From Tricholomella constricta (lineage: Eukaryota > Basidiomycota > Agaricomycetes > Agaricales > Lyophyllaceae), in the NCBI GenBank assembly GCA_013368375.1, contig JAACJP010000042.1:1-64000 (forward strand): a DNA stretch of 64,000 nucleotides. The letters are read 5' to 3'. Position 1 is the stretch's first letter; each line of letters starts with the position of its first letter. The position numbers were made by a program, and so were the translations under genes. A model generated the notes under the pieces. It did no database searches, was not told the origin of the DNA, and saw nothing but the letters and a program-made list of their open reading frames with translations. Of the stretch, positions 40,700-59,288 are shown piece by piece.

Positions 40700-41050
40700 T
40701 CAAAAGCGAAAAGTGCAAAAAGTAGAGCATGAAGCCAAGCCGAGAGGACACGCACTAATCTCCTGCCTAACTCCCTGCACCTTCCCTAGCTTCCCCTCCA
40801 TCTCGTCTCGCGCGCGCGATCTTCTGGACCACGGACACAAAAATCGTGAGCTGGTCAGCCATGCCGTTAATCGTCCACGACATTCATCATCTCTCCCGAA
40901 ACTGGCATGCGTGATTTTCTTCGTTAGGTCCCCGCCGGCCATGGTCGCCGTCGCCACTGAGATTGTACGCACTTGCAGTGTCAACTGGGCACGCGTGTGC
41001 GTGTCAGTAGGTCACAGATCGAGGGGGTAGGCAAAGGGAAAGGTAACGCA
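40700..41050 (-). pseudogene. Histidine kinase HAMP remnant, distal part (copy 2)
   Basis: After an intron acceptor (CCCAG at about 40985) the minus strand reads LTLQVRTISVATATMAGGDLTKKIT, split here as LTLQVRTISVATATM and AGGDLTKKIT, a typical group III kinase HAMP unit. The next unit (VQKIAR...GKLGKVQGV) is reached only with frame changes. The intron donor half lies at 56449, on the far side of the LINE. No kinase or receiver domain is present, so it is a fragment. Confidence 0.65.
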
Positions 41051-43161
41051 AGATCAAGGATGCGTGGCGAGCTGGTAATGTTGCTGTTGCTCTCTTCCTC
41101 GACGTCCAGGGTGCTTTCCCTAACACAGTGAAAGAACGTCTCCTTCATAATATGAAGGAGCGAGGCGCGCCGTCGTGCTATGTCAAGCTCACCGAGCGGA
41201 TGCTCACTGGTCGCAAGATCCGCCTGAAATTTGATGACTTCACCTCTGATCCCACAGACATCGTCAATGGCACCACCCAGGGCTGCCCACTGTCAATGCT
41301 ATTCTATGCATTCTACAATGCACCGCTAATCCTGACCGCCCCCCCCAACAGCAAGGCCGAGACATCCATCGGCTTCGTCGATGATTCCATGTACCTTGCG
41401 GTAGCCAAAACGCTCCAGGGTGCTCACAAGATTATCGCTGACATGACAGAACGCCATGGGGGAGGATTCGACTGGTCCCAGTCCCACAACTCCCCCTTCG
41501 AGCTCTCGAAACTCGCGCTTATGAACTTCCCCCGCTCCCACCAAGATCCGATTCCCCCCGACCTCACCCTCACCCGCAAGAATGAAGATGGTTCCACGAC
41601 ACTCCAGACTGTCGAGACCGCACTGACGTACAAGTACCTAGGGGTCGTCTTCGACCCCAAGCTACGATGGTCTGCGCACTACCAGAAGGTAATCGCCAGC
41701 TCCACCTGGTGGTCCTTTCAGGTGGCCCGCCTTTCAAAGATCTCCGGGGGCATGCCCCCCCACCGAATACGCCAACTGTATAACACGGTGGCCGTCCCGG
41801 CCTTCCCCTATGCAGCTGATGTTTGGTACACAGGGATACAAGACTCGCCGAACAGCAAGAAACGAACTGGCTCTGTCGCAATCACCAAGAAACTCATCCC
41901 CGTCCAGAGGAGGGCCGCGCGACTCGTCACCGACTCCCTCAGCACGACAGCCGGTGACGTCCTTGATGCCCACACTAACCTCCTTCCTGTAGACCTACTA
42001 TATCACAAGATTCTCCAGCGCGCCGCTGTCCGCCTTGCCTCCCTTCCCCCTACCCACCCCCTGCACGGCCCCGTCCGTAAGGCCGCACGACGTCATGTGA
42101 AGCGACATCGGTCGCCTCTCCATAACCTCTTCTTCATCACTGGAGTCGACCCCACCCAGATCGAAACCGTGGCGCCCACAAGGCGCCGCCCCAACTACGC
42201 CCCTTCCTTTAGTACCCATATCAAAGGTAACAAAGAGAAAGCGCTGGTGGAAGCTAACCGCATCCATCGTTTAGCGCCCACGTCGGTCCACTGCGACGGT
42301 TCGGGATACGAAGGCGGCGTTGGCGCCTCGGCGGTCCTCTTTATCAACGGCGTCGAGAAGGCATCCCTCCGATACCACCTGGGTCCTATAACGAAACACA
42401 CTGTCTACGAAGCCGAAATCGTCGGCCTAACGTTAGGCCTACATCTGCTAACCTCCACCAGTCGCCAGCTCCACTCCATCACGGCCATTGGCAGTGACAG
42501 CCAAGCCACGATCCGAGCCCTGGGCAACCAGAAGCCCCACCCCGCCCACTACTTACTTGATCACGTTCACACAGCCGCGGAGAAACTCCACGTCAAGCAG
42601 GACCGCATCGCTCGTGCAGACGACCGACGCGCCGCGATACGTAGAGGTAACCCGTGGACTGACCGTACACGTAGAGTAATTGATCTCCAGATCCACTGGA
42701 CTCCCAGCCATGTCGACTTCGGACCCAATGAGCGGGCTGACGAACTCGCGAAGATCGCTGCGACGGGCGACTCAAGCCCCGCCCCCTCCCTCCCGGTTTA
42801 CCTCCGCCACAAGCCCCTCCCGGTCAGCATCCCCGCCATCCGCCAGGCGTACCTTTCGGTCCTGCAAACACGCTGGAAACGACGCTGGAAGAAGTCCCCA
42901 CGCTACCCGGCTATCCACGCCATCGACAAATCCCTCCCGTCTAAAAAATTCCTCAAACTCGTCGCGTCTCTCGACCGCCGTCGCTCCGCCACCATCGCGC
43001 AGCTCCGCACCGGCCACTCACCCCTCAACCAACACCTCTTCCGCATCCACAGGTCGGAGTCCCCCTCCTGCCCCCACTGCCAGGGTATCACCCCCGAAAC
43101 CGTGCGTCATTCAGGCAGTACTGTCTCTTCTCTGCAAAACCCAACTGCAAATATCAGTTGA
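41051..43161 (+). pseudogene. LINE reverse transcriptase-RNase H, 5' part
   Basis: Frame open from about 41060. RT: LFLDVQGAFPNTV (41090s), NGTTQGCPLSMLFYAFYNA, and the catalytic block IGFVDDSMYL (41370s). RNase H: HCDGSGYEGGVGASAV (D), YEAEIVGLTLGL (E), IGSDSQATIRAL (D) and HWTPSHVDFGPNERADELA. The C-terminal zinc motif starts as CPHCQGITPETVRH and is cut at 43111 by the transposon; the last ~16 codons are transposon sequence. The endonuclease and early RT are missing, so it was never autonomous at this site. Confidence 0.88.
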
Positions 43162-44031
43162 AGCGTTTTGCAAAACTGACTGATAGTTGCTGTCAGCGGC
43201 ATTTTGCAAAATGTTGCAGTTGCGTTTTGCAAAACGTTGCAGTCGTCGGTTAGGCATTTACACTCGGCCCGAGCATTTTGGTATTACCGGTTGCCTGAAA
43301 AGCGGCTTGCTCGTTGATCGCTGCTGCCGCCAGCCTCGCTACCCCTTCCAATGCCGTACTGCACGATGCCAAGAGTTCTTTGATTTGTACATGTGTCCTG
43401 ATCCCCGACATCAAATTTTGAGATCAATGTAGACGACGACGGCATCCCTTTGGTCACTGTCCTCCACAATGCCAAGGACTCTCCCTTTGTTTTCCCATTG
43501 TTATTTTTGTTTTTCCAAGTTTTTATTCAAGGCTGTTTGTTTTTTGTTGCGCGCGTCCGATTTTCATCATGGCACACAAGTCCACCCATTGCACTTCAAT
43601 ATTTCCCTTTTCCTGCTAGCTACCTGCCAACAATGTCTAAGTAATTTTTGGACTTCCGCAATAGAAATTTCAGAGGGTAAGCCTCGTTCGAGAAATGTTC
43701 GCGACTGTTCACAACTGTTCGCAACCGTTCGCAACCGTTCGTAACTGCTGTTCATAACTGTTCGCGACCGTTCGCGCATTAGTTACACTTGCCATCAAGT
43801 CCACTAAAATTAGCAGAGGGTAAACTATACAATTTTTTCAATCTACGTGTAGTAATTAGGCAAATGCGCAGGGTGAATGGGTAATCTATGTAGGTGTATG
43901 AAGTTGGCGAACGCGAGGGGAATAGTATACTATGCGATTCTTCTAGGCTATGTGTACTACATTCAATTTACTATTTCTTGTGCCTGCATTGAGCGCCGTC
44001 AACGTTGTAACATGCAGGAGGAAGTCAGCGC
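43112..44031. other. Left end of KDZ element (non-coding)
   Basis: Starts CAGGCAGTACTG. TTTTGCAAAA occurs at 43166-43175, 43202-43211 and 43225-43234, candidate transposase-binding sites. An 11-bp array (CTGTTCGCAAC and variants) lies at 43690-43775. No supported gene in the rest. Confidence 0.6.
43690..43775. repeat. 11-bp GTTCGCAAC-type array
   Basis: About seven imperfect tandem units such as TGTTCGCAACC, GTTCGCGACC and GTTCACAACT. Similar units recur singly near 46528 within the same transposon. Confidence 0.75.
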
Positions 44032-46429
44032 TTACGTTTTTGATTTATTTGGTGGAGGGGGGGTGCGGTCAGCTCGTGCTGGGGCCTGGATAGCTCGACG
44101 GGGACGGGAGGCTGGCGTGCTCTCCTGGATAGCCGCAGCTTTGCGTTTCGATCCGGCTCCTACTGGTGCTGCACTGTCTTGGGCGTTCGCAGCATTCTTT
44201 GCTGCGGCAGCCTGCTTCTTCTTCTCTAGAAGCGATTTTTTTCGGGCAATGGTCTCTGCCCGCTTCCTTGCCGCGGCCGCTCGCTTTTCATCGGTGTTAG
44301 AGGCCGCCCGACTTGCTACAGGGATTGTTCCGCTCAGGAGCTCCTCCGATGTTTGGTTCGCCGACCCAAGTACCGTATAATCAAGGTAGGGATGGGGGCA
44401 TGGGGCAGCAAGGAAGCATTCGGGGCTGGTAGCACCAAGGTAGCGGCTGCAGGAGATGGCTCAGTGCTGCTTGGGATTGGCGTAGGGGCATAGGGCCGCG
44501 GGGCTGGAGCCAGCGATTGCGTTGTTAAGGAAGGGGCCGCATCGTGGACAGGCTGCGGAGTGAGGGCAGGCCCGTGGGCAGCCGCAGGAGACGGCTCGGT
44601 GCTGCTTGGGACTGGCGTAGGAGCATAGGGCCGCGGGGCCGGGGCCAGGGATTGCGTTGAGGAGGCAGCAGCGTGGAAAGGCTGCGGAGTGAGGGCAGGC
44701 CCGTGGGCGGCCGCAGGAGGCGGCTCGGTGCTGCTTGGGATTGGCGTAGGAGCATGGGGCCGCGGGGCTGGGGCCAGGGATTGCGTTGAGGAGGCAGCAG
44801 CGTGGAAAGGCTGCGGAGTGAGGGCAGGCACATGAGAAAGCGGGCCTGGAGTTGGGATCGGCATCATTGATGAAAAGATGTCGGCTGCAGGAGGATATGG
44901 GGCTGGGGGCAGCCGTAAAGGTGAGGCTGATGGTGGGCTCGGTGCATACGCAGGAGACGCGGGGTGGGGAGAGTAGGAAGGCGACGGCTGCAGCAGAGCC
45001 GGGGTATAGGCAGTAGGGGCCAAGTTTGAGGGCTGCTGGGGAAGTGGAAAGATTGATGGGCTAGCTTCGCCAAAGAAGGCAGGGTAGGCAGGGTTCCAAA
45101 GTAGTTCGAGTAGGTCGGGGCGCACAGAGGAGGCATCTGCGGGAGGAAGGTGTGGCAACGGTGTAGAGGCAGGTGGACGTTCTGATGCCTCCCCAAAAAA
45201 AGCATCGAAGCCGTGGAGAGTGCTGCTAGAGCCGTCATACTTGCTGAGATCAAAGTTGTCCTCGAGACCCTCGCTGCCCTGCTTCTCGATGGTCTCGAGG
45301 GCATCCAAGTCCAATGTAGGTGAGGGTGGTGCGGTCGATGCTGCTTTCTTTTGAGCACGGGCCATCGACGCTGCATCCAACGCGCGAGTTGCCCGAACGC
45401 CCTGCGCTGTAAACACGATTGCAACACCATAATGATGACCTGATACATGACTAGACTTACGAAAAATACCCTTGACATGGCTGAGGAAAGGATTCTCGAC
45501 CTGCTCAATATACCCAGCATGGGCCTTCTGGAACGAGTTGCCAGCGAGGGAGGTTGGACCAAAGTACTGCCTGAAATACTCGGTCAGTTTGGCCGTTGCA
45601 CATTTCAGGAGTTGTTACTTACTCGACGCTCGAGATTTCGCCATTTGCGATTGGGGTCGGGCCTGCGGCTATGAGGTGGATGACCCATCCTGTCGCCTCG
45701 GCAGCCGCCTGAAGGAAATCGTTCACGACCGACGGAAACTGCTGGATGGCGCTGTTTGGCGTCAACAACAATTGCACACTGATGACCAAAACGAATACAC
45801 ACTAGTGATAATCCTCAGGTGAGCGTTCGTCCTCGTCCTCGGAGTCAGATTCATCATCAAGAGCAGCTTTCTTGGCCTGCTTCTGCATCTCTATGTACTC
45901 TGCCACCGCTTTCTTCACTTCAGCTGTCTCCTCTTGCCATAGTCTCTGGGGAACCTCCTTGACAAGACCGAGGCGCGTGCTTCGGTCGATCAGACCAGCT
46001 TTCTGGATGGCTTCCGCGATGGCAGCCCGAGTTTTATCTCTGTACAGACGCTGGTATGCATCCACGGCTCGCGGAATGCGCACAGATCTCGATTTTTGTT
46101 TTCGCTTGAACGCATCTTCGGCTGACGCGCTGCTTTTACTTCGTTTCGGAGGCTTCGCGTTCCAGGAAAACCACCTCTTTATTTGCTGGCAGAAACAGCG
46201 TGAGTTCTTCTGTATAATTTTTGCTGTTCGACTCACTGACATCTTTGCGGCTGTTGACCGTAATGACGCGACCCTTTTTGTCCAGGAGCTCCGGCCACTT
46301 CTGGAACCAGGCCTCAGCGACTTTGTTGTGAAACCGGTCCGTTGTTGCTTTTGCCTGGGCCTCGATAAATTCAGGTATGTAATCTTTGAGCCATGAAAAC
46401 TGCTCAGAGGTTGTCCATCGCTCGGGCAT
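44032..46429 (-). pseudogene. Cargo gene A: unknown, Pro-rich, one frameshift
   Basis: Exons 46429-46241, 46185-45803, 45751-45623, 45570-45461 and 45406-44032 join in phase; about 730 residues. The N-terminus is helical and Trp-rich (WTTSEQFSWLKDYIPEF, reminiscent of SANT/trihelix folds). A Lys-rich segment and FPSVVNDFLQAAAEATGW follow, then a long Pro/Ala region with three 43-residue repeats, and a basic C-terminus (RARKR-like, KKSLLEKKKQ). Near 44380 the phase changes without an intron, so the last ~115 codons are reached only by a frameshift: mutation, or an error in the sequence. Function unknown; basic ends suggest nucleic-acid binding (inference). Confidence 0.6.
44445..44830 (-). repeat. 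129-bp coding tandem repeat in gene A
   Basis: Three units of exactly 129 bp (43 codons, core ALTPQPFHAAASSTQSLAP) keep the reading frame. High identity between units points to recent slippage or unequal exchange. Confidence 0.85.
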
Positions 46430-46808
46430 GGTGAAGAAGGTAGGCAGGCAAAGGTCATTTCAATTTGAAAAGGTTTGTGCTCTTCTGCTCAATGCTTGGC
46501 CAAAATTATGTATATTAGTGCTGCTTGATCTGTTCGCGACCGTTTGCGACTAGTGCGCTCTAGTGCGTCACATTTGTCTGCGCTAATAACATGTAAATAT
46601 TTCTGATGCCTCGCCATACAGGATCGCCCGATCTCACCACTAGCGTGCCTCAAGATCACATGTGTTGTTCTCTTGGAACCTTCAGGTACGTTATCTATGC
46701 GATGCGACGTGTGTTAAGCGACAACAGATTGATGCCTTGTCTTTGCAGCACCATAAATTGACCCCCCATTTCAACCGATAGAAAAATCCCCCTCATCCTC
46801 CTTTCACA

Positions 46809-47634
46809 ATGTCAAGGAAACCTCTCCAGCCTCGCCCCCTTTCCATTGGCGATCGTGAGCCCTCTCGCGAGTTTCGTGACTCTCTGGCGCTTTGCATCGC
46901 CTCCCTCAACACGGTGCAGGTGGCGCTGACTACAGCACAGGCTGGTTCGTCATTTTTTGCATGCGTCATGCTGCGACTCATGCAGTCTCATCTTCTTGTA
47001 GCTCTTCAATGCATCGCCCCGACCCCAACGCGTAAGTTCTGATCTCCTCATCAACGAGCCCTATTGACCTTTTCAGATTCCCCACGTGTTTCCTCGCTGG
47101 AGTACCCACTTCCAAACACAGGCACTGATGATAAAGGTACGCCACCTGGCTGATAAGCGAAATTTGCATGATTGATCGCCCCCTGTATGATATACAGGCC
47201 CTCGTGCAACAAGTACACCACCCCGTAGCCCAGATGAGACATGCTCCGGCATGTCCGACGTCCTCACCGACTGGGAATCTCCGCTGAGCCGCCCATCCTC
47301 ACCAGCAGGTACGTGAACTGTGTTCTTACTGAAACTCTCAAACTAACACATCATTTATTTTGAAAGCCTCGCACAAATGGTATGCAATCATTATCGGTCG
47401 CAATCCCGGCGTGTTCCATGGACCGTAAGTCCTCTAGTTTCATCCTTTTGCAAGTCTGCTAATCTACGACTTATAAGGGATGGAGTCGCAGCCAACGTGA
47501 GCGGTATACCTGGCGGAAACCCTGCGCGCTTCGATACGGAACAGCAGGCGCGTGAGGCCTACCAGGCGGCATTGGAGCAGGGGCTGGTTCAGCGGGTTGC
47601 TGTAGTTACGACGCGCACTGTCCTCAGGAATTAA
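46809..47634 (+). CDS. Cargo gene: RNase H1 N-terminal (hybrid-binding) domain protein
   Basis: Six exons join in phase: 46809-46944, 47002-47031, 47077-47136, 47198-47308, 47367-47424, 47478-47634; 183 residues. The C-terminal ~65 residues (HKWYAIIIGRNPGVFHGP...AANVSGIPGG...RFDTEQQAREAYQAAL) are the RNase H1 N-terminal/caulimovirus-VI domain, which binds RNA:DNA hybrids. The N-terminal part is short, Pro/Ser-rich and has a helical start. There is no catalytic RNase H domain. Exon 2 is only 30 nt. Lying inside the transposon beside the TET/JBP gene, it may bring hybrid or target nucleic acid to the element's machinery (inference). Confidence 0.75.
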
Positions 47635-47776
47635 TGGATGTAGTTTATTCTTGTTGTGTTTGGTCGTTGTAAAAGTATTCCCCGTAAGTAAGAAGTATGG
47701 AGAGTTTCTCAACGTCATTGTCCGTATGTCCAGCGTCCACTGTAGAAAAGATTCTACTGTAATTAACGTAACACGA

Positions 47777-48850
47777 CTACCCTGCTTCCCCTAATACCAG
47801 ATTGAGAGGCCCCCCACTCACGAGGCTGCTCCGAAGCTCAAGTAAGGTGACCCCACGCACAACGATCTCAACGAGCTCTGCTTGGACGCGCCACATCTCC
47901 CGAATCTTCCACATCTCGTACGGCAACTGCCCCTCAATCTGTTTCAATTGAGCAAGCAGTTTCCGACCCTCCGCCGCATGCCCCCACACATCCATAACCC
48001 ACGAATCGAGAGAGCCAGAATTCTCGGCGTCCTTGTAGGTGGTCTCCAGTGAAGTCGTCCAATTTGAGATACCACAAAAGGCGCAACTCCAGGTCTGGAC
48101 GTCTCGTTGCATTTGTCGGAGGAGTTCATATTGCATTATATTGTTGGTAGGCGCGTCATCAGTAGAGATCGCATCCTGTTCTTGCGGCGCGTCAAATTGA
48201 CCGAACGAAATATTGAGTTTCGGAGGAACGGTGGACTGCTTCACCCCAGTTTTTGATGTGCGAGCAGCTGTGTTGCCATGATCATCGAAGTCAAAGTCGT
48301 CTTCGAAGCCGAAAAAAACTGGGTGCAGCACCAGAGAATTGTTTCCCGGAACCAGCGTGAGCTTTGTAGCTCGGCGTTCAGTGTCATCCTCAGAGTCGCT
48401 TTCTGTCAAAGAACTAGCCATAAGCATGGACGATGGTAGATCAATTTCAGTTATCGTTCAAGATGACAGGGATAAATTTACCTTTCTGCTTCCTGTCTGT
48501 GAAGGCCGTTAAATATCCTGCTGCGCGTTATAAAAGATAAGAAGATGGAGCATACTGTTGTTCCTCAGCTTGACGTTTTTTGATCAGTACAACTTGCGCA
48601 AGTTCTGCCTCTTTTCTGAGGCAAGATTGAGTCTACAAAGGAATACATTCATAATTGAAGAGGCGTACCTTCGTGCTCGGATTTTTGCCATGCGTATTCT
48701 GGCTGAGTCCTGACATTTTATCTTGTTTCTATACTAATGTCTTTACTTGTTCATCCTCGTAATTATAGAGATATAGAACTGACCTTCGATAATATCTCTG
48801 CGATTTGGTTTCGTCGTTCCCTGTGCCAGTATTCTGTTCATCATCCGACA
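47777..48850 (-). CDS. Cargo gene D: unknown, five exons
   Basis: Start ATG at 48850. Short first exons (about 48850-48783, 34 nt ending near 48672, and one near 48640-48566) and a 15-nt exon near 48495 lead in phase into the main exon from about 48421 to 47777; roughly 270 residues. The N-terminus is charged (DDEQNTGTGNDETKS). A Lys/Gln-rich helix (ELAQVVLIKKRQAEEQQ) and an acidic SDSEDDTE patch follow. The middle has WSCAFCGISNW, and the C-terminus is helical and leucine-rich. No family is recognised. Convergent with the hybrid-binding gene, 143 bp apart. Confidence 0.55.
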
Positions 48851-49743
48851 TGATTTATGAGGTTGAAGTAGGAAAGACAGAGCATATGAACACACCGATC
48901 ACTGTTTTGTTGCGCTGATGCCACCTTGTTAATGGATGATTTCTCTCCATTCATATAGGCTTATCTCTGCACCTCAAGCATGGTATTCCTACATTCTGTA
49001 GATGATGAAGGTCAATTATCCAGGTTTATAGACCTCCCCGGCTCCTCTGAGTCCTTCTGGAAGCGAAATACTCGCAGTTCTCGACCATGTTCGCAACACG
49101 TTCGGCACTTCTGGCTATGTTCGGCACCTTGGATCGCCACTTGCATCAAAACTGATCAGTGGGTGGTCCCGATTTGGCCTTGTTCAGGGCTGGTCTGGTG
49201 CACCTTAACCGCTCAATGCATGGGAAAATGGCACATTTTCGATTCCTCAACGCGACCGCCACCACGAAGTAGAACTCTGAGGTAAGTCCTACTCGCTCTC
49301 TTTATGCCCCTTTCTTTCTCTATGGATTTGGGAGGCTGCACGGCGAGCCTCACCCATGGGCACACGGCAGTCGTCCAGTCTCATGAGCTCTTTTTTTGGT
49401 TTTCTCGGGGGTGCTCTAACTTTTTCGTCAGATCATTTGCAGACGCAAGCCTTAGGCACATGGCAGGCTGCCTTGTTCACGTTTTATTCTGTGTACCTTT
49501 GCATATCGCCAGACTTCCCTTTTTTTCGGTGCTCAGAACTTAACTTCGACTTGCACAGGCCTGTCAAATCCGTCATTCGCGCCCACTTTCGCCATGGAAC
49601 GAAAGGTTCGTCGTTTGGTGGTGTATCTTGTCATATGTCCTCATTTGGATCAGACTCGTTCAGGCGCTTCGTTCTCCCTGTTTTCCTCGGCACTCATCGA
49701 CATCGAAACACCGCTTTGCATCCAGCCACTTCTGCACACGGCT
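48851..49743. other. Divergent intergenic region in the KDZ element
   Basis: Lies between unknown gene D (minus) and the TET/JBP gene (plus), so it should hold both promoters. No convincing exon was found. An ATG at 49594 in phase with the TET/JBP first exon would lengthen that protein by 50 residues. Confidence 0.4.
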
Positions 49744-51324
49744 ATGGCGACTGATTTTGAGATTCTAGGTAGCAGCAACGAAGGGCACGGGGCGGGATCG
49801 GGTGCTTCGCTGCAGCAGGCATCTATGCACCGGGCTGTGCGTCCCCTGCCGAAGCGGTGTCCCTTACCTGAGCCCCCACTCCCATGCAAGCCCTCTCCGA
49901 CACTGCCCTCGACGAGCCATGTGGCTGCCAAGCAAGCTGGTGTGGAGGGCTCTCGAAACAAAGCTCGCTCGAAGGCCCGACGCAGCGCCAAGCACCACGT
50001 CCGGGCGGCGTGCCCTTTACCTGCAGCTGGTTACCGCCCGCGCCATACGCCCACACTGAGGGCTGGCCTACCTTTCTTGCGGACGGCGCTTAGTTCTTCG
50101 CGCCTTCCAGCTGCGTCTGGGCGCTGGGTGGGAAGGCGCCAGGAAGCGATTAAGGACACGCCCTGGACGCTGGAAGAGCTTGCCGCAGAGGGTCTGGAGG
50201 TATTTCCCTGGGATGGCTGGTGCGGGCAAGCTTTTTAATTTTCATATTGACGGCTGACGTGTTCAAAGCACCCCGCATGCGATAACTGACGAAGACGGCC
50301 GCGCCATCGTTATCCTCGCTGGTGCCCCTAATGATCCGGCATGGGCCGAGGTGGCCTCGGCGGCAGAGAAGACGATGACCAGCGTGCGCCTTGAGGGAGA
50401 ACGCCTTGGTTCCTTCATGCTTAATCAGACGGACCATCGCCGGGGGCGGTTTATTGCTCTAGCTACGGGGGTATCGTATGGAGGAGGGCAGACGGTATGA
50501 TTGTTGTTTCTCCAACTGCTCGAGATACGTTAGCTCATGAGGTGCCGGCTGCTAGGAACCAGGAAATCTTGCGCATTCGGAGAAAAACATTGCGCTTCTC
50601 AAGCTGCTACGGGAGGACCCACACATTCAGCGGATCGCAGGGTTTCAGTCGAGTGAGCAATCCAATCATACTGACACGTAGGTGTCAAAAAATAAACATT
50701 TCACCCATTGCAGGTGCCTTCGCTTATTACGCCCCCAAGATGTACCGGCATTACGCTTCCAACCTGGAGGACCTATACCGGCACAATGAGCAGCGTAGTA
50801 CACACCTGGACAAAAAATTCCAAATAAATTTCACGGACAGCATCTTCCCAGCCGTAACCTTCAATCTGGGCCCGGAATCCGTCTCGCTTGACCACACTGA
50901 TTCTGGAAACGTTGCCTACGGAATGTGTGCCCTCACCTCAGGCGGCGCATTTGACCCGAAGAAAGGGGGCCACTTGATTCTGTTTGACCTGGGCCTTGTG
51001 ATCGAATTTCCTCCCGGCTCCACCATTCTGATCCCTTCTAGCATCCTCCGCCATGGCAACACTCCAATTCAAGAGGGAGAGCGCCGCGTTTCAATCAGCC
51101 AGTACTGTGCTGGAGGTCTCTTTCGCTGGGTCAAGTACGGATATCAGACCGCCGCCTCACTGGAAAAGAAGAAGGGAGGTGGGGCCATGAAACGTGAGCT
51201 TGACGGTGACGATGACAAGAGAACACTCGAAGCGCTGGGTCTATTTTCCAATATCCGGGATCTCGAGATCGATCGCCGCGTAGCGTTTGGGTTGCCCCTA
51301 CCTCCTGACCACGTAGCCAACTAA
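49744..51324 (+). CDS. TET/JBP-family 2OG/Fe(II) dioxygenase
   Basis: Four exons join in phase: 49744-50219, 50269-50494, 50556-50652, 50714-51324; 469 residues. N-terminal third basic and Pro/Arg-rich. The catalytic half has the markers of fungal TET/JBP proteins: EPGNLAHS, RIAGFQSSAFAYYAPKMY, the metal pair HTD in SLDHTDSGN, the distal His in PSSILRHGN, and the 2OG-binding Arg in RRVSISQYCAGGLFRW. Enzymes of this family oxidise methylated or other modified bases in nucleic acids. All catalytic residues are intact. It is transcribed in the same direction as, and 408 bp upstream of, the transposase. Target base is unknown; loosening host methylation of the element is a reasonable inference. 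The start at 49744 is a choice; 49594 is possible. Confidence 0.85.
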
Positions 51325-51732
51325 TTATCTTCGCATAATTTCATAAACTTCTTGTAGAACGTGCTCTCATTTGTTCCTCGCCGACAGATCTGAGAAAATA
51401 TCCAAACGCCTGCAGTATGCGCTGACCTCTGGATCCCGGGGCTGGAATCAGCGTGAGAGGTCAGCTCCATAGTCATGGTACGAGCTCCTCACATTTGAGT
51501 CAAGATAGAAGGCGCTGACCATCCAATTTACGATGTGCTGGGCATATCAAAATCCACATGGGCAATATGTGCATCGGTGTGTGCAAATCTGCCTATTTCA
51601 AATGGCGTTCCTGACTAGATTTCTTGTGTTTCGCTCTCCAAGGCCCACCCCAATGCAGTATGGATGCCTCTGTCAGTACGCTTCTACAACGCTCGTGATC
51701 CTTTGGTCTGACGCTCAGTATAGCGGCCTACA

Positions 51733-54700
51733 ATGTTGGAAAAGAGACGAAATAAGAAAAAGAATCCGAATCTGGTGCTTCGGGTGCATCCTTTGGCGGC
51801 TGAGAGTCATCGGCCGATCACCCCCCCCCCACCTGTCCATGTTCCTCTCACCCGGTACCATACTCTCCCAAGCGGAAACTTGGGTCATTCAACAAGCTAC
51901 CACCCTCTCATCGCATCCCCCAGCAAGGACTCGTGGTCCCCTTCGGGTCTCAACTCGCAGGCAGATGGCGAACTTCCTGACTTCGTGCTGGACAGTGTTG
52001 AGGGCTCCAACAGCGCCTCGTGGGTAGACCCAGCATACATGGAGCATCTCGAGGACACTGTTGTGGCGCCACGCACGCAGAGACGAGCAGTATGTGCTTT
52101 TCTCCTCTAGAAACTGCATCCTTGCTCACCGCCAGACCTTTCCTAGGATAACCCTCTGCTGTACTGGCTGCCCGATCGTGATACCTTTGTGGCTGAAGAT
52201 ATTCGATGGGATGGGCGCGGCGAGTACACCAATGAGCTCTGCCCAACGTGCAGCTTCTGTGCGCCTAAATACAGGTGCGAGGATTGCGAGGGTGGGCAAT
52301 TGCTGTGCCGTGAGTGCACGGTGGAGAGCCATCGGTTGAACAGCTTGCACCGAATCAAGGCAAGTATCTATGAAGCATGTTGAATGAGGTGCTGATGTGA
52401 CCAGTAGGCATGGACCGGCTCCTTCTTCGAAAAGGCATCCCTGAAATCACTTGGGCTTCGCATCCAGCTGGGCCATTGCGCCGGCGAATTGTGCTCTAAC
52501 CCAAAGCCCGCCTTCGCCGATGACTTTGTCGTGGTGCATGTCAACGGGATCCATGAGCTGGCTGTCGACTTCTGCGACTGTCAGACGGCTCAACTTCCTT
52601 TTGTGCAGTTGCTTCGTTATCGATGGTACCCGGCGACTGTTGCTCGCCCAAAATCTGCAGCAACTTTTTCCGTCCTCAAGCACTTCCATCTCCTGACCTT
52701 CGAATCAAAGGCGTCATGTTTTGAATTCTACCACGCGCTCTCACGCTTGACCGATAACATGGGACTAGAGAAGGTTAAGGTACGTGCTTATCATCTATCA
52801 GGAGATAAAAAAATGTTCGCGACCCTAACTTGGATGTAGGATCGCTACTCAGCCTTCATGCGTATGGTTCGCGAGTACCGCCACATCAAGATGCTGAAGC
52901 GCGCTGGACGAGGCCACGACCCAACCGGTGCTGCAGGTACGCTATCGGGAGAATGTGCTGTGTTGTGCCCTGCGTGTCCCCAGCCCGGCATGAACCTTCC
53001 GTTTGGATGGCAAGATGCCCCCCAAGAGAAACGGTATGCCCCCCAGTGGTTTTTTAGTGCCCCTCACTTTATCATGCTCGTTCCAGATGGCTGTATCGTT
53101 TATTTCTAGCAATAGATGCGAATTTTCGGTTGAAGCGAAAGCATGTTTCAAATGGCGTGGCTGATCCCGCCCTTGGGGATGGAATGTCGTATTTTGTGAA
53201 GCAACGGGAATATGTGCAGTTTCTCAATACGTTTGGCACACTGATCATTCAAGATGTCCGTCGATTTCATTCCCCATCTATTTCTTGACACTGACATTGA
53301 TTCTCTAGCCTTCGACGTGTGCTAACCATAAAGCTGTCGATGCAGAGCGCTCGACCAAGGGGCTAGCCTCGACTGGTGTAGGCACGATTGACTGTGCTCG
53401 ACACGATGTGAAGCGGCCAAAATCCGTCGGCGATCTTCAGCGTTCTGAGCGGTAAGTTATGTTTTGGTCTGCTTCGATTGGACCTGATTAAACACTGCTC
53501 CAGCTACGTGAACATGGATTACCTCTTTTGGTCAAGCCTCGAGGATAGTGAGCTCATCGAGCTCGTTGTCTCCTACGATATCGCTTGCCAATGGAGCATC
53601 AAGATCTGGGAGCGGCTCAAGAAATATCGCCGATGGACCCAATACAACGAAGACGGCCAGCGTGTTTTCGTTTTCCTTGTTCCCAAGTTCCATCTTCCTG
53701 TGCACATCATGGCATGCCAATCTGTCTTCTCCTTCAACTTCAATGCACACGTAGGACGCACCGACGGTGAGGCTCCCGAACGCGGTTGGTCACACATTAA
53801 CCCAACAGCGACGAGCACGCGAGAGATGGGCCCAGGATCTCGACAAGACACCTTAGATGATCATTTCGGCGACTGGAACTGGAAGAAAACAACTCTTATG
53901 GGTGCGTTAACCTCCGTGAAGTTGATTTGAGATGCTACTTACTTATCTTCGGGCTACAGGCTTATCTCTTCTTCGCAAAATAAAAACCGCTGTCGCTGAA
54001 CGCAGCGAACAGGTATTTCGTTACCATCAATTCGAAGCTGGCTTGGAAGAACCGCACCTGTCTCGCTGGAAGGCCGAACTCGCGCTCTGGCTGGAGGACC
54101 ATAGCAACCCAAATCCCTTTGAATCTCGCTACAAGGGTGAGTCCCGGCATAGCATCAGCTGGTATTTTTCCTCACTCGATGTCAGCTCTTTCACAGGACA
54201 GCGTCCGCCGTGAACTAGCCAAGCAAGATGCCGCCGATCTTGCCCAGGGCACTGCATATGTCCTCCATGAGACTGTCTCTGCCAGCCAACTCATGACGAT
54301 GGGCATAGATCTCGAGGAGCAGCAGTGAGTATTGCCCGTCATTTCACTAAGTTTTTGTTGCTGATTTTTCTTCATTCAGGCGGCGCCTGACCGTAGACGC
54401 TGCTGAGCTGGGCCCACACTCTACCGACATTCAGAACACCCGGATACAGGTTTGACGCAACATTCTGAAGCGCAAGATTGATGCATGGATTGATATTCAG
54501 CACCTGTACATTCCTTCACTTTCCATGGCCCGCTCCCAGGTCGCCGGTGAACAGGAGGACGATCCTGCCGAAAAAATCCCTCTCATGCTGCCATCAGCAT
54601 TGAAGTCTCCTCTGCCATGCGACATCCGGTTGCGTGAAATGGAATGGGTGCTCCGACAGTCGCAAGCCAACGACGCACTTGACGAACTTCGTGAGGGGCT

Positions 54701-55406
54701 ACGACTCCAGGCCTACCTTTACATTGACAAAGACCGGTTTCAGCGCGGGCAGTATCACAGCACAAGGTCTCGGGGAGTCATTCAGCGGGTCAAGGTGAAG
54801 ATTGATGCTGCAGCGCGCAAGTATCGGGTGGCACGGGGGGCTCTTTGTGAGCTGGCAGGCATCTTGGAGAAGGTGGGCTGGGGCATCTCCTACCCAGTCC
54901 TACATGATGCAGACATCAAGCAGCTTTCAGGGAACGGCGACGAGTCGGAGGGCCGTAGGACAGTATCCTGGATCTGGATTCGACTTGGCGATGGTTCACA
55001 GCTGGACCAGGAGGAAGGGCTACAGGACGGTAAGTTCCACATAATATCTCTTAATTTCCACAGCTGATGTATTCTAGCCCTGCGTATCGAGTGGTGCAAG
55101 AGCAAGGCGAGGTCGGATCGATGGTCAGAAGAGGTGGAACTGCTGCAGGAGGAAATGCGGCGGGTTCTCGAGTTTTTTGAGACCATGGCGGTCAAGTGGG
55201 AGCGGCGTCCGGCAGCATTGTCCTTCGTGGAAAGGGATAGTGCATCGCGCGAGGCGCTTCAGGCATATGCAGCACGTCAAACCTCTCAGTTCCGTGCAAT
55301 GCGGGACCATTGTCGTCATATGTGGCGTTTCGTGCCCCAGTACGTAGCTTTAGGCGGGGGTGTAGATGTAGTACCGCCGGAACTCAACACCGACGATGGT
55401 GAATAA
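51733..55406 (+). CDS. CxC2/KDZ transposase with one in-frame stop
   Basis: Exons: 51733-52089, 52147-52359, 52408-52779, 52840-53033, 53087-53255, 53309-53451, 53504-53901, 53960-54136, 54186-54324, 54380-55029, 55078-55406; all phases agree. The N-terminus is basic. The CxC2 cysteine cluster (CPTCSFC, YRCEDC, LLCREC, SHRLNSLHRI) precedes the KDZ catalytic domain with acidic residues in LAIDANFRLKRK (about 53105), SYDIACQW (about 53571) and DGEAPERGW (about 53764). It would cut and move the element. The intron at 52360 begins with GC. A TGA at 54453-54455 (V-stop-R-N-I-L) interrupts the C-terminal helical region; the frame is otherwise open for 300 more codons. The product would be truncated after the catalytic core unless read through. 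Confidence 0.9.
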
Positions 55407-55758
55407 TATTATTAATGGTTTTAATAAAGAAAATTCATATTTATTAAAGCGTGGCGTATGCCAAGTGAGATATGCCAAGTGAGAGCGCTCAGGTGCTCGC
55501 GCTCAGCGGGAGGCGGGAGGCGCTCAGCGGGAGGCGGGAGGCGCTCAGCGGGAGGCGGGAGGCGCATGGCGGGAGGCAGCAGAACACATGACGGGAGCGC
55601 GCACGGTAGCAGAGGCCAAATTAGACATCAATAGTGTTTTGCAAAATGACTGGAGTTTCAGTCGTTTTGCAAAGAGGAGGTGACAGCAGTTATCAGTTGT
55701 TTTGCAAAATGCCTTGACTGAAGTTTCAGTCATTCCTGCAAAATGGTGTCAGCATCAG
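55407..55758. other. Right end of KDZ element (non-coding)
   Basis: Contains a 21-bp array (GCGCTCAGCGGGAGGCGGGAG) x4 at 55499-55582 and TTTTGCAAAA at 55637-55646 and 55700-55709, with two shortened versions near 55664 and 55735. The terminal inverted repeat is weak at best (ends ...GTCAGCATCAG). Confidence 0.65.
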
Positions 55759-56025
55759 GTGCGTCATTTCCTACTGGTGTGCCCCCACTACCAGTACGAA
55801 CGTCACCACCATCTTCGACGTAACCTTAAACGCAAAGCTGAGTCCATTTCCTATCTCCTCTCGAGCCCCGGTGCCTTAAAACACCTCCTCAGGTTCACCC
55901 ACGCGACGAAACGCTTCAAGCCCGCCGCCGTCACTGCACGACAGCTAGCCGATGAACGTGCCCAAGCCAGAGCGAGCCAAACGCGGCACCCTCCCCGCCG
56001 CCCCGCCCCCACCCGCCCCGCCTGA
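55759..56025 (+). pseudogene. LINE ORF, C-terminal end
   Basis: Resumes the LINE frame at VRHFLLVCPHYQYERHHHL, completing the CCHC zinc motif begun at 43060-43090, then a basic tail to the stop. Followed by about 400 bp of LINE 3' UTR and the poly(A) tail. Confidence 0.88.
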
Positions 56026-56439
56026 CAGCATCCGAACCCACGCCATGTTCCCCTCTAAATTACCCCACACTTAATCCAGATCCATAACGGCACACGACAC
56101 CTCGACTCCCCGATAACCTTCACTTTAATACAGTTTCCTTTTCGGTCAGAGTGCACAGTCGTGCTGCTCGTTCCCCCCCCCCCTCCCGCTTTTGCGGGCC
56201 TTCGTTGCCGCCGAAACAGATCCGTTCTTTTTCTCGTTGTCTTTTCTACTCAGGGCTTACCAGGGGAGCGCTTCCTAAAACGGTGTCGGACACGCCGGCT
56301 CACTCTTTCTCCAATTGCTGGGGGGGTGTAGCATTAAACGTCTCTCGTAGATGCGTAAATACCTGTTTGTATGTACCGTGGACCATAGGCGCAATGCGCC
56401 TTGAACACGATAATATGATTCAAAAAAAAAAAAAAAAAA

Positions 56440-56590
56440 GGTAACGCACGTTGTGCGCCATGACATTGACGTTGTCCGTCAGGTCCTTCTGAGTCCCGTC
56501 TACATTCGTTACCCAGGCCTGTTCACAGAGCCGCCCCACCGTCTCCACCTCCCTTGCAACCTGCGTCTCGATCAAGGTCTGTGTGCTTAC
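56440..56590 (-). pseudogene. Histidine kinase HAMP remnant, proximal part (copy 2)
   Basis: The minus strand reads [40 protein letters not shown], a clear Nik1-type HAMP repeat, up to an intron donor GTGCGT at about 56449. The LINE inserted within the first bases of that intron; the acceptor half is at 41 kb. Lies directly downstream of F-box copy 2. Confidence 0.7.
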
Positions 56591-57136: not shown

Positions 57137-58948
57137 CTACGATAAATAATCATCCTCATCGTAGTGGCTGTTCTTTTGAAGCCCAAACATTGTTTGCACT
57201 TGGCTCAAGGAGTCCATCTCCTCCACCTTCACATTAAGCCTCGATTTCCGGGCCGTGCGTACGCTCACTCTGTCGTCGCCGTGCGCAGCCGCGCCATATT
57301 CCTCATCACCAAGCAAAGTAGCAGCCCTCACATCTTCACCCATGGCCCTCAAAACCTCCTTGTCCAGATTTTTCAAAAGCGAAAGCACATACAGCGCCAC
57401 CTTCCGCAGTCTCCGGCCTCCACCACACTTCGTCCACTCCGCAACAAGCGCCCCAAAGTCTTTCCCCACTCCTCGTACATCTTCCCCCTGCGCGTCTTGC
57501 AGCGAGAAAACAAACCTAAACTCCCTCAAGTGCGAAAACCGCACCATCTCCTTCATGCGCCTCAAAATCTCATTCGGCGACACGCTCTCCACGAACAAGC
57601 CGAGTTTTTCTACCGCCGTACACCGCTCCAAGAATCCAACGAGCTCTGCCACTTCCACCTCAACATGACACAGCACGACCTCCCTCAGGCTCAGTGCCCT
57701 CCATTCCGCGGTGCCGCCTGGTTCTGCCAGGTGGGGCAGCAGCGCATACACCGGGAACGTGCCATATTCGGAGCTGACCTCGAGCGTCTGCAAGTTTGGA
57801 ACCCGCAGCAGCGGTAAGACATTCACCATAGTGGGCGTAACTGCGAGCGGGTCAATGAACATCACGGAGAGGCGCAGGTGCTTGAGGTGTGGGAACGTCT
57901 GCGGGGTAGAGGGGATCATTGGCGGTGGAGGGGCCGGGGCGAAACGGTCGGGAAAGCTACTGATGCGTGCGAAGAGTGCGGTCTGGAGGTGGAGTGTGCG
58001 TTGAAAGAGTATGTGGGTGAAGGTGCTGAAGGTGATTCCATAATCGATTTCGAGGTGGGTGAGCTGTGCCCAGGGGAAGCGGAGGTTTGTGGGGTCGGCG
58101 AGGAGGTGGGAGGGGATGGAGAGGTAGAGGGTGCGGAGGCATGGGGCAGCAGCGAAGACAGTTGCTGGGGGGAGCAGGGTGGTGTCGTTTGGCTCATCTG
58201 CTTCTGGGATCGGGTATGTATGGTATGCAAGGAGGCGGAGGGACTCGAGGGCGGGAAAGCTGTCAGGTGGGAGGCAGAGGAAGGGAATGAGGGCGTCATA
58301 GTTCTTGAACATGAAATCGAGGGAGAGCTTGACCAAGCGGGGTGAAAAGGCAACGATGCTTTGCGAGAGGTCAGCGAGAACAATGTGGTCCTTGGGTGTG
58401 CCTGCAATCCATATGGAGAGCCGTAATGGATGGGAGCTGTTGGAGTGGCCATACCACGATGCTACACGTTCACTGAAGACACCCGGCGACGCTTTAGTGT
58501 GCGGCCCAACCAAAAGCTTCAGTTCATTCCAGAAATCAGAACAGCCAAACACCGCATCTCGCCAGGCAGAGCAGACATGCGCCAAAGCGAGTGGTGATTC
58601 TGAGCGGTGAGATGGACGGTACACCGTCACTGTGTACTTGAATATCTCTGTCAGGAGTTCGGGGGGAAGGAGGCGTAAAGGCGACAGGATGTATTTGCAA
58701 CGGCCGATCTCCTTTTTTTCCTGTAATCGCGCGTCCTTGAGGTCTTTCATCGAATTCATCAACTCGTTGATCTTGAACTGGATGCTACAGATGTCATGGT
58801 CGATGGCTTCGATGTTGTCCGTCCTTTGTGCGATCATCGTGTTGACGGAGCGGACTTGCGCACTGTTGCACTGGTTGTTAGTGCGCAGGAGTTGGCTAAA
58901 AATGATATCGAGTCTACGGTCTTCGCGATTATCGCCCTGCAGCGGCAT
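57137..58948 (-). CDS. F-box protein with LRR-like tail (copy 2)
   Basis: 603 residues from ATG 58948 (MPLQGDN); the frame is open upstream to 59128. F-box at residues about 88-135 (LSPLRLLPPELLTEIFKYTV ... LALAHVCSAWRDAVFGCSDF), then irregular leucine-rich strands. Nearly the same sequence as the gene at 10233-12041, with mostly conservative changes and no stop, so both copies may be active SCF substrate receptors. It lies in inverted orientation about 47 kb from copy 1. The target is unknown. Confidence 0.85.
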   Translation of the reverse strand: MPLQGDNREDRRLDIIFSQLLRTNNQCNSAQVRSVNTMIAQRTDNIEAIDHDICSIQFKINELMNSMKDLKDARLQEKKEIGRCKYILSPLRLLPPELLTEIFKYTVTVYRPSHRSESPLALAHVCSAWRDAVFGCSDFWNELKLLVGPHTKASPGVFSERVASWYGHSNSSHPLRLSIWIAGTPKDHIVLADLSQSIVAFSPRLVKLSLDFMFKNYDALIPFLCLPPDSFPALESLRLLAYHTYPIPEADEPNDTTLLPPATVFAAAPCLRTLYLSIPSHLLADPTNLRFPWAQLTHLEIDYGITFSTFTHILFQRTLHLQTALFARISSFPDRFAPAPPPPMIPSTPQTFPHLKHLRLSVMFIDPLAVTPTMVNVLPLLRVPNLQTLEVSSEYGTFPVYALLPHLAEPGGTAEWRALSLREVVLCHVEVEVAELVGFLERCTAVEKLGLFVESVSPNEILRRMKEMVRFSHLREFRFVFSLQDAQGEDVRGVGKDFGALVAEWTKCGGGRRLRKVALYVLSLLKNLDKEVLRAMGEDVRAATLLGDEEYGAAAHGDDRVSVRTARKSRLNVKVEEMDSLSQVQTMFGLQKNSHYDEDDYLS

Positions 58949-59288
58949 GAGTGTCCGCGTCACAGAAGAAAATGACCCACGCACCTTTGACCTGGTCTTC
59001 GTCGCTCTGCTTTCCAACTTCCTTTTCAAAAATTCGACGCTTTCCTCAGAGAGGGTTGGTACTGAAATGCGCAGTAAGCCTCCCACGGCCATGTTAATTT
59101 GAGAGTGCGTATAGTGCACATACCCCAACCTTGCGATGATACGTCAACACTTGAGATAACTTCCCTACCGCAAGTGGACACAACATACCAATGTATTCTT
59201 GCTGACTCAAAATTGCCCTCCATGCCACAGCTTTTGGCATTGGCCCACGCCGACCTTGAAAATTGGTTAAATCCATTGACAAGTGGTT
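58949..59288 (-). repeat. 5' edge of F-box duplication (copy 2)
   Basis: Matches 9861-10232 reversed, ending at CACTTGTCAATGG. Beyond it the two loci differ: gypsy sequence at copy 1, unrelated sequence here. Confidence 0.7.

What the first reader, a model, noticed from the sequence alone, without database searches (positions are those of the whole stretch)
43112..55758. 12.6-kb KDZ transposon with a five-gene cargo including TET/JBP
The boundaries are fixed by a 10-bp direct repeat and by the interrupted LINE frame, so every gene between them travels as one unit: CxC2/KDZ transposase, TET/JBP oxygenase, RNA:DNA-hybrid-binding domain protein, and two unknown multi-exon genes. KDZ-TET linkage in fungi is established; a precisely bounded element with a hybrid-binding protein and two conserved-looking unknowns suggests a larger module for handling modified nucleic acid during transposition.
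Basis: partly seen in the sequence, partly recalled or inferred. Interest (0 to 1): 0.92.

Follow-up and report, generated by a model that had tools for sequence, protein, structure and literature searches.

The report
TET-carrying fungal Kyakuja transposon, five genes
This is a complete jumping gene of a known fungal family (Kyakuja) that carries a DNA-demethylation-type enzyme, and a survey of copies in the same genome shows that it also carries three little-known companion genes, one with an RNA:DNA-hybrid-binding domain, that have stayed together in the same order while the copies diverged.

Summary
It sits in a LINE whose other copies are uninterrupted there. Four other copies read at both ends also have CA..TG ends and their own 7-bp duplications. 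These are published hallmarks of TET+ Kyakuja (Kojima 2025), so the element type is known.

Not found in print: the extra genes are a fixed part of it. Gene A, a hybrid-binding-domain protein (HBD), gene B, TET and KDZ occur together in 11 of 13 loci with gene B, in the same order (one copy with an internal inversion); all five show dN/dS of 0.10-0.27. Ten further KDZ loci without a TET hit carry A, HBD, a gene B' and KDZ in the same layout. So HBD does not depend on TET, and the "modified-nucleic-acid module" reading is only partly right. I favour a four-gene core plus a TET anti-silencing add-on. Functions of A, B and HBD are inferred; this copy's transposase has a premature stop.

The parts
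43105..43111 (.). left target-site duplication CGTCATT
   Evidence: repeated at 55762-55768; single copy position in LINE paralogues
43112..55761 (+). complete Kyakuja element, 12,650 bp, 5'-CA..TG-3'
   Evidence: alignments of most relatives begin at 43112 (C41's begins at 43106) and end at 55761
43112..43260 (.). left terminal region with subterminal TTTTGCAAAA motifs
   Evidence: 3 TTTGCAAA in the first 300 bp, none in the middle of the element
44334..46429 (-). gene A: 5-exon model, 627 aa; conserved N-terminal ~270 aa without Pfam match, low-complexity C-terminus (frame may continue to 44032)
   Evidence: dN/dS 0.15 against the C5 copy
46809..47634 (+). HBD gene: 6-exon model, 183 aa, RNase H1 N-terminal (hybrid-binding) domain near the C-terminus
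   Evidence: PF01693 29.1 bits, cut-off 21; dN/dS 0.27
47777..48852 (-). gene B: ~279 aa, basic N-terminus (start and first exons revised by hand from Collybia nuda homologues) and conserved C-terminal domain
   Evidence: helices only in a low-confidence model of the C. nuda homologue P0002; dN/dS 0.23 for the earlier 258-aa model
49744..51324 (+). TET/JBP dioxygenase, 4-exon model, 469 aa, open frame; HTD, H and R invariant among 5 copies
   Evidence: dN/dS 0.16
51733..55407 (+). CxC2-KDZ transposase, 11-exon model; in-frame TGA at 54453-54455
   Evidence: dN/dS 0.10
55630..55761 (.). right terminal region with subterminal TTTTGCAAAA motifs, ends CATCAGGTG
55762..55768 (.). right target-site duplication CGTCATT
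41047..43104 (+). 5' part of the interrupted LINE frame (reverse transcriptase, weak Pfam match)
   Evidence: RVT_1 20.6 bits, below cut-off 29.6
55769..56440 (+). continuation of the LINE after the element
   Evidence: LINE copies align to about 55759-56440

Best explanation
A TET+ Kyakuja (KDZ) DNA transposon that inserted into a LINE, making a 7-bp duplication. Layout: <A HBD> <B TET> KDZ>, that is, two divergent gene pairs followed by the transposase. SHOWN by sequence: bounded element, five genes with a fixed order in this genome, purifying selection on all five, and related KDZ loci with A, HBD and a gene B' at the place of B but no TET hit. INFERRED: KDZ cuts and joins the CA..TG ends, guided by the subterminal TTTTGCAAAA motifs. 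A and B are accessory proteins of transposition (B has a basic N-terminus as in DNA-binding proteins). HBD binds RNA:DNA hybrids or duplex RNA made where the element is transcribed, keeping it active or assisting transposition. TET, an add-on lying between B and KDZ in one clade, oxidises 5-methylcytosine on the element so that it escapes silencing. This copy is probably no longer autonomous.
For: Ends and 7-bp duplications in 5 of 5 copies read at both ends (window, C5, C33, C14, C29). LINE copies without the element. Five-gene set in 11 of 13 B loci. dN/dS against the C5 copy: A 0.150, HBD 0.269, B 0.233, TET 0.160, KDZ 0.100, all bootstrap upper limits below 0.5. All five genes rank the copies alike in dN (C5 closest, then C33, then C14), as expected if they were inherited together. 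Four-gene loci without a TET hit, 10 of 10 B' loci. HBD of both clades passes the PF01693 cut-off. Motif confined to the ends.
Against: No function was tested. B and B' show no profile similarity (hhalign E 0.13), so their correspondence rests on position and orientation. A matched neither Pfam nor HMG boxes. The TET domain scores below its Pfam cut-off and found no solved TET structure by sequence. In the TET+ HBDs the tryptophan that I recall as contacting the DNA strand in human RNase H1 is not conserved; the two TET-less HBDs read have a tryptophan there. Some copies lack part of the set (C41, C50). One genome only.
Confidence: 0.7

Rival explanations
1. Passenger cargo: A, HBD, B and TET are captured host genes that ride along without serving the element.
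For: Captured genes are known in many DNA transposons (general knowledge); some copies lack part of the set (C41, C50).
Against: All five genes under purifying selection, same order in diverged subfamilies, and homologues of A, B and HBD lie mainly near KDZ hits.
Confidence: 0.07
2. R-loop-guided demethylation: HBD binds RNA:DNA hybrids over the element and brings TET to it, so the two act as one device.
For: HBD and TET occur together in 11 of 13 B loci. In mammals 5hmC made by TET favours R-loops (PMC8896830, abstract read), and R-loops are said to promote active demethylation by recruiting proteins (PMC13022674, start of abstract in the listing).
Against: HBD occurs in 10 of 10 B' loci, none with a TET hit, so its conserved role cannot be only to guide TET.
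Confidence: 0.2
3. HBD is a suppressor of RNA silencing that hides or sequesters the element's hybrids or double-stranded RNA, as a counterpart of the caulimovirus P6 protein, after which the domain family is named and which suppresses silencing.
For: Small PF01693 protein without a nuclease domain; P6 is described as a suppressor of RNA silencing (starts of abstracts of PMC3836500, PMC5734791 and PMC3469532 in the listing); independence from TET fits.
Against: No silencing data. Whether the PF01693 part of P6 is what suppresses silencing was not checked.
Confidence: 0.25
4. Separate transposons nested by chance, not one unit.
For: The region is rich in mobile DNA, and the C5 copy is interrupted by insertions.
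Against: Single pair of duplications around the whole, same content in independent insertions.
Confidence: 0.01

Closest known systems
TET+ Kyakuja transposons (Kyakuja-1_LB, Kyakuja-2_LB and others; Kojima 2025, PMC12730594)
   Same: KDZ transposase plus TET, 7-bp target duplications, 5'-CA..TG-3' ends, no terminal inverted repeats
   Different: the parts of that paper read (1-4 of 7, plus a term search) describe no HBD, A or B gene; 'hybrid', 'RNase H' and 'HMG' occur 0 times in its main text; its supplements were not read
KDZ elements of Iyer et al. 2014 (PNAS; not held, recalled)
   Same: TET linked to KDZ transposases with CxC cysteine clusters; the abstract, as I recall it, says that several such elements encode additional proteins including a divergent HMG domain
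   Different: gene A might be that protein, but the HMG test here was negative or too weak; I do not recall whether an RNase H1 N-terminal domain was reported there
Zisupton / Dileera and Cryptococcus KDZ1
   Same: KDZ transposase; KDZ1 is large (~11 kb)
   Different: 8-bp duplications (PMC12730594), and KDZ1 has 241-bp terminal inverted repeats (passages of PMC12810828)
RNase H1 / caulimovirus P6 N-terminal hybrid-binding domain (PF01693)
   Same: domain signature in HBD
   Different: no nuclease domain found; part of a DNA transposon

Membership tests
Kyakuja (TET+) | KDZ transposase domain | tested here: met
   PF18758 218.1 bits, CxC2 152.5 bits; Kyakuja was not separated from Zisupton or Dileera by a tree
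Kyakuja (TET+) | 7-bp target-site duplication | tested here: met
   5 of 5 copies read at both ends
Kyakuja (TET+) | 5'-CA..TG-3' termini without terminal inverted repeats | tested here: met
   CA and TG in the same five copies; in 3 copies tested, inverted similarity above shuffles exists but starts only about 20-33 bp inside the ends
Kyakuja (TET+) | encodes an AG-type TET/JBP dioxygenase | tested here: inconclusive
   Tet_JBP 26.3 bits below cut-off 34.9; HxD, H and R invariant in 5 copies; AG type not tested by a tree
HMG-box protein (gene A) | HMG fold | tested here: inconclusive
   no significant Pfam match, hhalign E 0.44 outside the region expected, single-sequence model of one exon pLDDT 60
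RNase H1 N-terminal hybrid-binding domain (HBD) | sequence signature over curated cut-off | tested here: met
   29.1 bits window; 39.3, 45.2 and 30.4 bits for L074, C17 and C14 (cut-off 21, with a few junction residues assumed)
RNase H1 N-terminal hybrid-binding domain (HBD) | binds RNA:DNA hybrids | not testable with these tools
   needs a binding assay; one contact residue (recalled) is changed in the TET+ clade

The most novel reading that the evidence does not exclude
Kyakuja elements are multi-gene elements with a fixed A-HBD-B-KDZ core, in which the hybrid-binding protein is the element's own RNA-level anti-silencing (or R-loop stabilising) factor, and one clade added a DNA-level anti-silencing enzyme (TET) beside it: a two-layer kit against RNA silencing and DNA methylation carried by a single DNA transposon.
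Probability: 0.25. Interest if true: 0.85.

Novelty: new variant of a known kind. Interest (0 to 1): 0.6.

Why it matters
In the literature I could read, TET-bearing Kyakuja elements are discussed as transposase plus TET. Here three further genes are shown to be kept by selection with the transposase, and HBD is present whether or not TET is. This separates two questions that were mixed (what the core needs, and what TET adds) and names a transposon-borne hybrid-binding-domain protein that can be tested directly for a role in R-loops, RNA silencing or transposition.

Tried and rejected
Public protein searches with gene A (alone and as a 4-sequence alignment): 7,995 candidates scored each time, none at E <= 0.001. 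Gene B: three homologues, all from Collybia nuda. The PF01693 profile on the whole genome was a poor tool: its 13 listed matches do not include the window's own gene, whose domain is split by an intron; HBD proteins were used instead. Structure models of A's second exon (pLDDT 60.4) and of the C. nuda B homologue P0002 (54.7) were too weak for a fold search, which was not run. HMG identity for A: not supported. Homology of B and B': not supported by hhalign. Nesting of separate elements: rejected. A as an ordinary host gene: 24 of 27 A loci lie within 30 kb of a KDZ hit (21 within 10 kb); exceptions are C41 (copy with A, HBD and B only), C8 (contig edge) and C58. One search adds A-like hits not in the 27: C22 twice and C6:1395894 lie near KDZ hits, C66:89083 and C64:107740 do not.

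Limits of the counts: loci for one search were typed by hand, merging neighbouring exon hits. KDZ loci (113) come from one search, which scored 150 of 177 candidates and cut its list. Dropped from the HBD list: one weak row, C59:77568 (E 0.003, 27% identity, stops inside). The nearest-KDZ column for C5:975139 names a neighbouring element, its own KDZ being about 27 kb away. dN/dS used only tblastn-aligned codons with local identity of at least 40%, which favours low values somewhat; B was measured on the first 258-aa model. The LINE test was given 21 of the loci fetched; other partial LINE hits were not given. Copies read at one end only (C10, C36, C41, C67 and others) are not in the 5 of 5.
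Full report
CHECK OF THE OBSERVATION. The interval was read directly. DNA searches of the window's own genome (44.1 Mb, 118 contigs, unnamed) gave two independent measures of the ends. LINE copies that lack the element align up to about 43109-43111 and resume at about 55758-55769, and diverged relatives of the element mostly align from 43112 (C41's from 43106) and up to 55761. The element is therefore 43112-55761, 12,650 bp, beginning CA and ending TG, with CGTCATT on both sides. Flanks joined with one duplication align without a gap to 10 of 11 distinct LINE copies (21 loci given); the C18 copy has a 9-base gap there. These are paralogous, not allelic, empty sites.

OTHER COPIES. Both ends could be read in four other copies: C5 (AACTCTA), C33:243822-256433 (GGGTCCG), C14:688360-700561 (CACTCCC) and C29:71050-83357 (GGATGTT); all have CA..TG ends and 7-bp duplications. 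Of nine copies of the C14 subfamily whose 3' sides were compared, eight (C14, C22, C27, C29, C50, C56, C59, C67) share the end CATCAGGTG and diverge right after it; the C5:822k copy lacks it in the stretch read. Over the last ~460 bp six are 99.1-99.8% identical to C14 and C67 is 93.7%, so I infer that this subfamily moved recently. TTTGCAAA occurs 3+3, 4+4 and 3+3 times in the terminal 300 bp of the window, C14 and C33 copies and never in their ~12-kb middles. Imperfect inverted similarity (1, 0 and 0 of 200 shuffles reach it) begins about 20-33 bp inside the ends, so there is no terminal inverted repeat in the strict sense.

GENES. Exon models were built by hand with GT/GC..AG introns. HBD (183 aa) and TET (469 aa) are open. 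The transposase frame has one in-frame TGA at 54453-54455; the KDZ and CxC2 domains lie before it, and five of five other copies examined are open there. B's N-terminus was revised after Collybia nuda homologues showed a basic stretch shared with the window. A has a conserved N-terminal region of about 270 aa and a low-complexity, proline- and alanine-rich C-terminus whose end is uncertain.

CO-OCCURRENCE. From coordinates in the same genome (tabulated in 75), A, HBD, B, TET and KDZ occur together in 11 of 13 B loci: window, C5:974-1004k, C33, C10, C27, C14, C29, C56, C59, C67, C5:822-846k. C10 carries an internal inversion of TET and the 5' part of KDZ; the spacing in C5, C59, C27 and C5:822-846k implies insertions. 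C41 (A, HBD, B) and C50 (B, TET, KDZ) are partial. Of the loci in these calls, 24 of 27 A, 12 of 13 B and 11 of 13 HBD lie within 30 kb of a KDZ hit, against about 14% expected for a random point. Of 23 TET hits, 15 lie within 30 kb of a KDZ hit; the six with the best Tet_JBP scores do not.

LOCI WITHOUT TET. L074 (C5:957-965.5k) holds a KDZ transposase with a divergent A (31% identity to the window's A), an HBD (39.3 bits) and, where B lies in the window, a gene B' with a basic N-terminus; this B' has an in-frame stop of its own. Searches with these proteins found ten B' loci (C5, C33:150-156k, C15, C16, C17, C21, C22 twice, C38, C43), and all ten also have A, HBD and KDZ hits in the same order and orientation, with no TET hit within 15 kb; in C21 KDZ lies about 8 kb further off. 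C58 has A and HBD but no listed KDZ. B and B' show no profile similarity. The termini of these loci were not read. The simplest reading is a core of A, HBD, a B-type gene and KDZ, into which TET was inserted beside the transposase in one clade; loss of TET in the other clade, and independent recruitment of B and B', are not excluded.

SELECTION. Window against the C5 copy (Nei-Gojobori, 300 bootstraps): A 0.150 (0.109-0.198), HBD 0.269 (0.138-0.487), B 0.233 (0.154-0.336), TET 0.160 (0.117-0.241), KDZ 0.100 (0.072-0.136). Synonymous sites are near saturation against C33 and C14, so those ratios are not used. In dN, all five genes rank C5, C33, C14 alike. Each of the five genes has therefore been kept as protein-coding in the element's lineage.

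MECHANISM. Cut and paste by KDZ and recognition of the subterminal motifs are inferred from family knowledge and anatomy. TET as an escape from methylation silencing is Kojima's proposal for such elements (PMC12730594, parts 1-4 of 7 read). For HBD two readings fit: an RNA-silencing suppressor or R-loop factor of the element, or a guide for TET. Its presence in loci without a TET hit argues against the second as the sole role. In the TET+ HBDs the position of the tryptophan that I recall as a DNA contact in human RNase H1 is not tryptophan, whereas two TET-less HBDs read (L074, C17) have it, so ligand preference may differ between the clades.

WHAT IS KNOWN. Of the Kyakuja hallmarks named by Kojima, the 7-bp duplication, CA..TG ends and lack of terminal inverted repeats are met and the AG type of TET was not settled, so I file the element as a member of that kind. 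Whether the companion genes are in print: the listings of five library searches (only the top rows of each are shown) and a term search in Kojima's main text showed no mention of a hybrid-binding protein in KDZ elements; no held paper has both 'Kyakuja' and 'hybrid-binding domain'. Passages only were seen of PMC7641404, PMC12810828, PMC8290104 and PMC7473861. Iyer et al. 2014 and all supplements could not be read, and Iyer's abstract (recalled) mentions additional proteins, including a divergent HMG domain. The claim of novelty is limited accordingly.

Noticed in passing
54453-54455: In-frame TGA in the transposase of this copy; five other copies examined are open there, so this copy is probably not autonomous.
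   Followed up: yes
G000:C5:1003188-1006439 (L062): A second Kyakuja 3' end lies just inside the 3' end of the C5 copy, in an element spanning about 36 kb.
   Followed up: partly
G000:C10:13680-26136 (L071): Copy with an internal inversion covering TET and the 5' part of the transposase.
   Followed up: partly
G000: C6:995k, C39, C17:814k, C10:65k, C61, C95: The six TET genes with the best Tet_JBP scores lie near no listed KDZ hit; they may belong to other transposons or to the host.
   Followed up: no
G000:C15:877289, C71:14028, C75:40277, C82:34386: Four PF01693 matches with equal scores and no A, B, B' or KDZ hit nearby: possibly another mobile family with a hybrid-binding domain.
   Followed up: no
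57137-59143, strand -: F-box-like protein (23.3 bits, cut-off 24.3) next to the interrupted LINE.
   Followed up: no
55500-55580: Short direct repeats (GGGAGGCGGGAGGCGCTCAGC) near the 3' end of the element.
   Followed up: no
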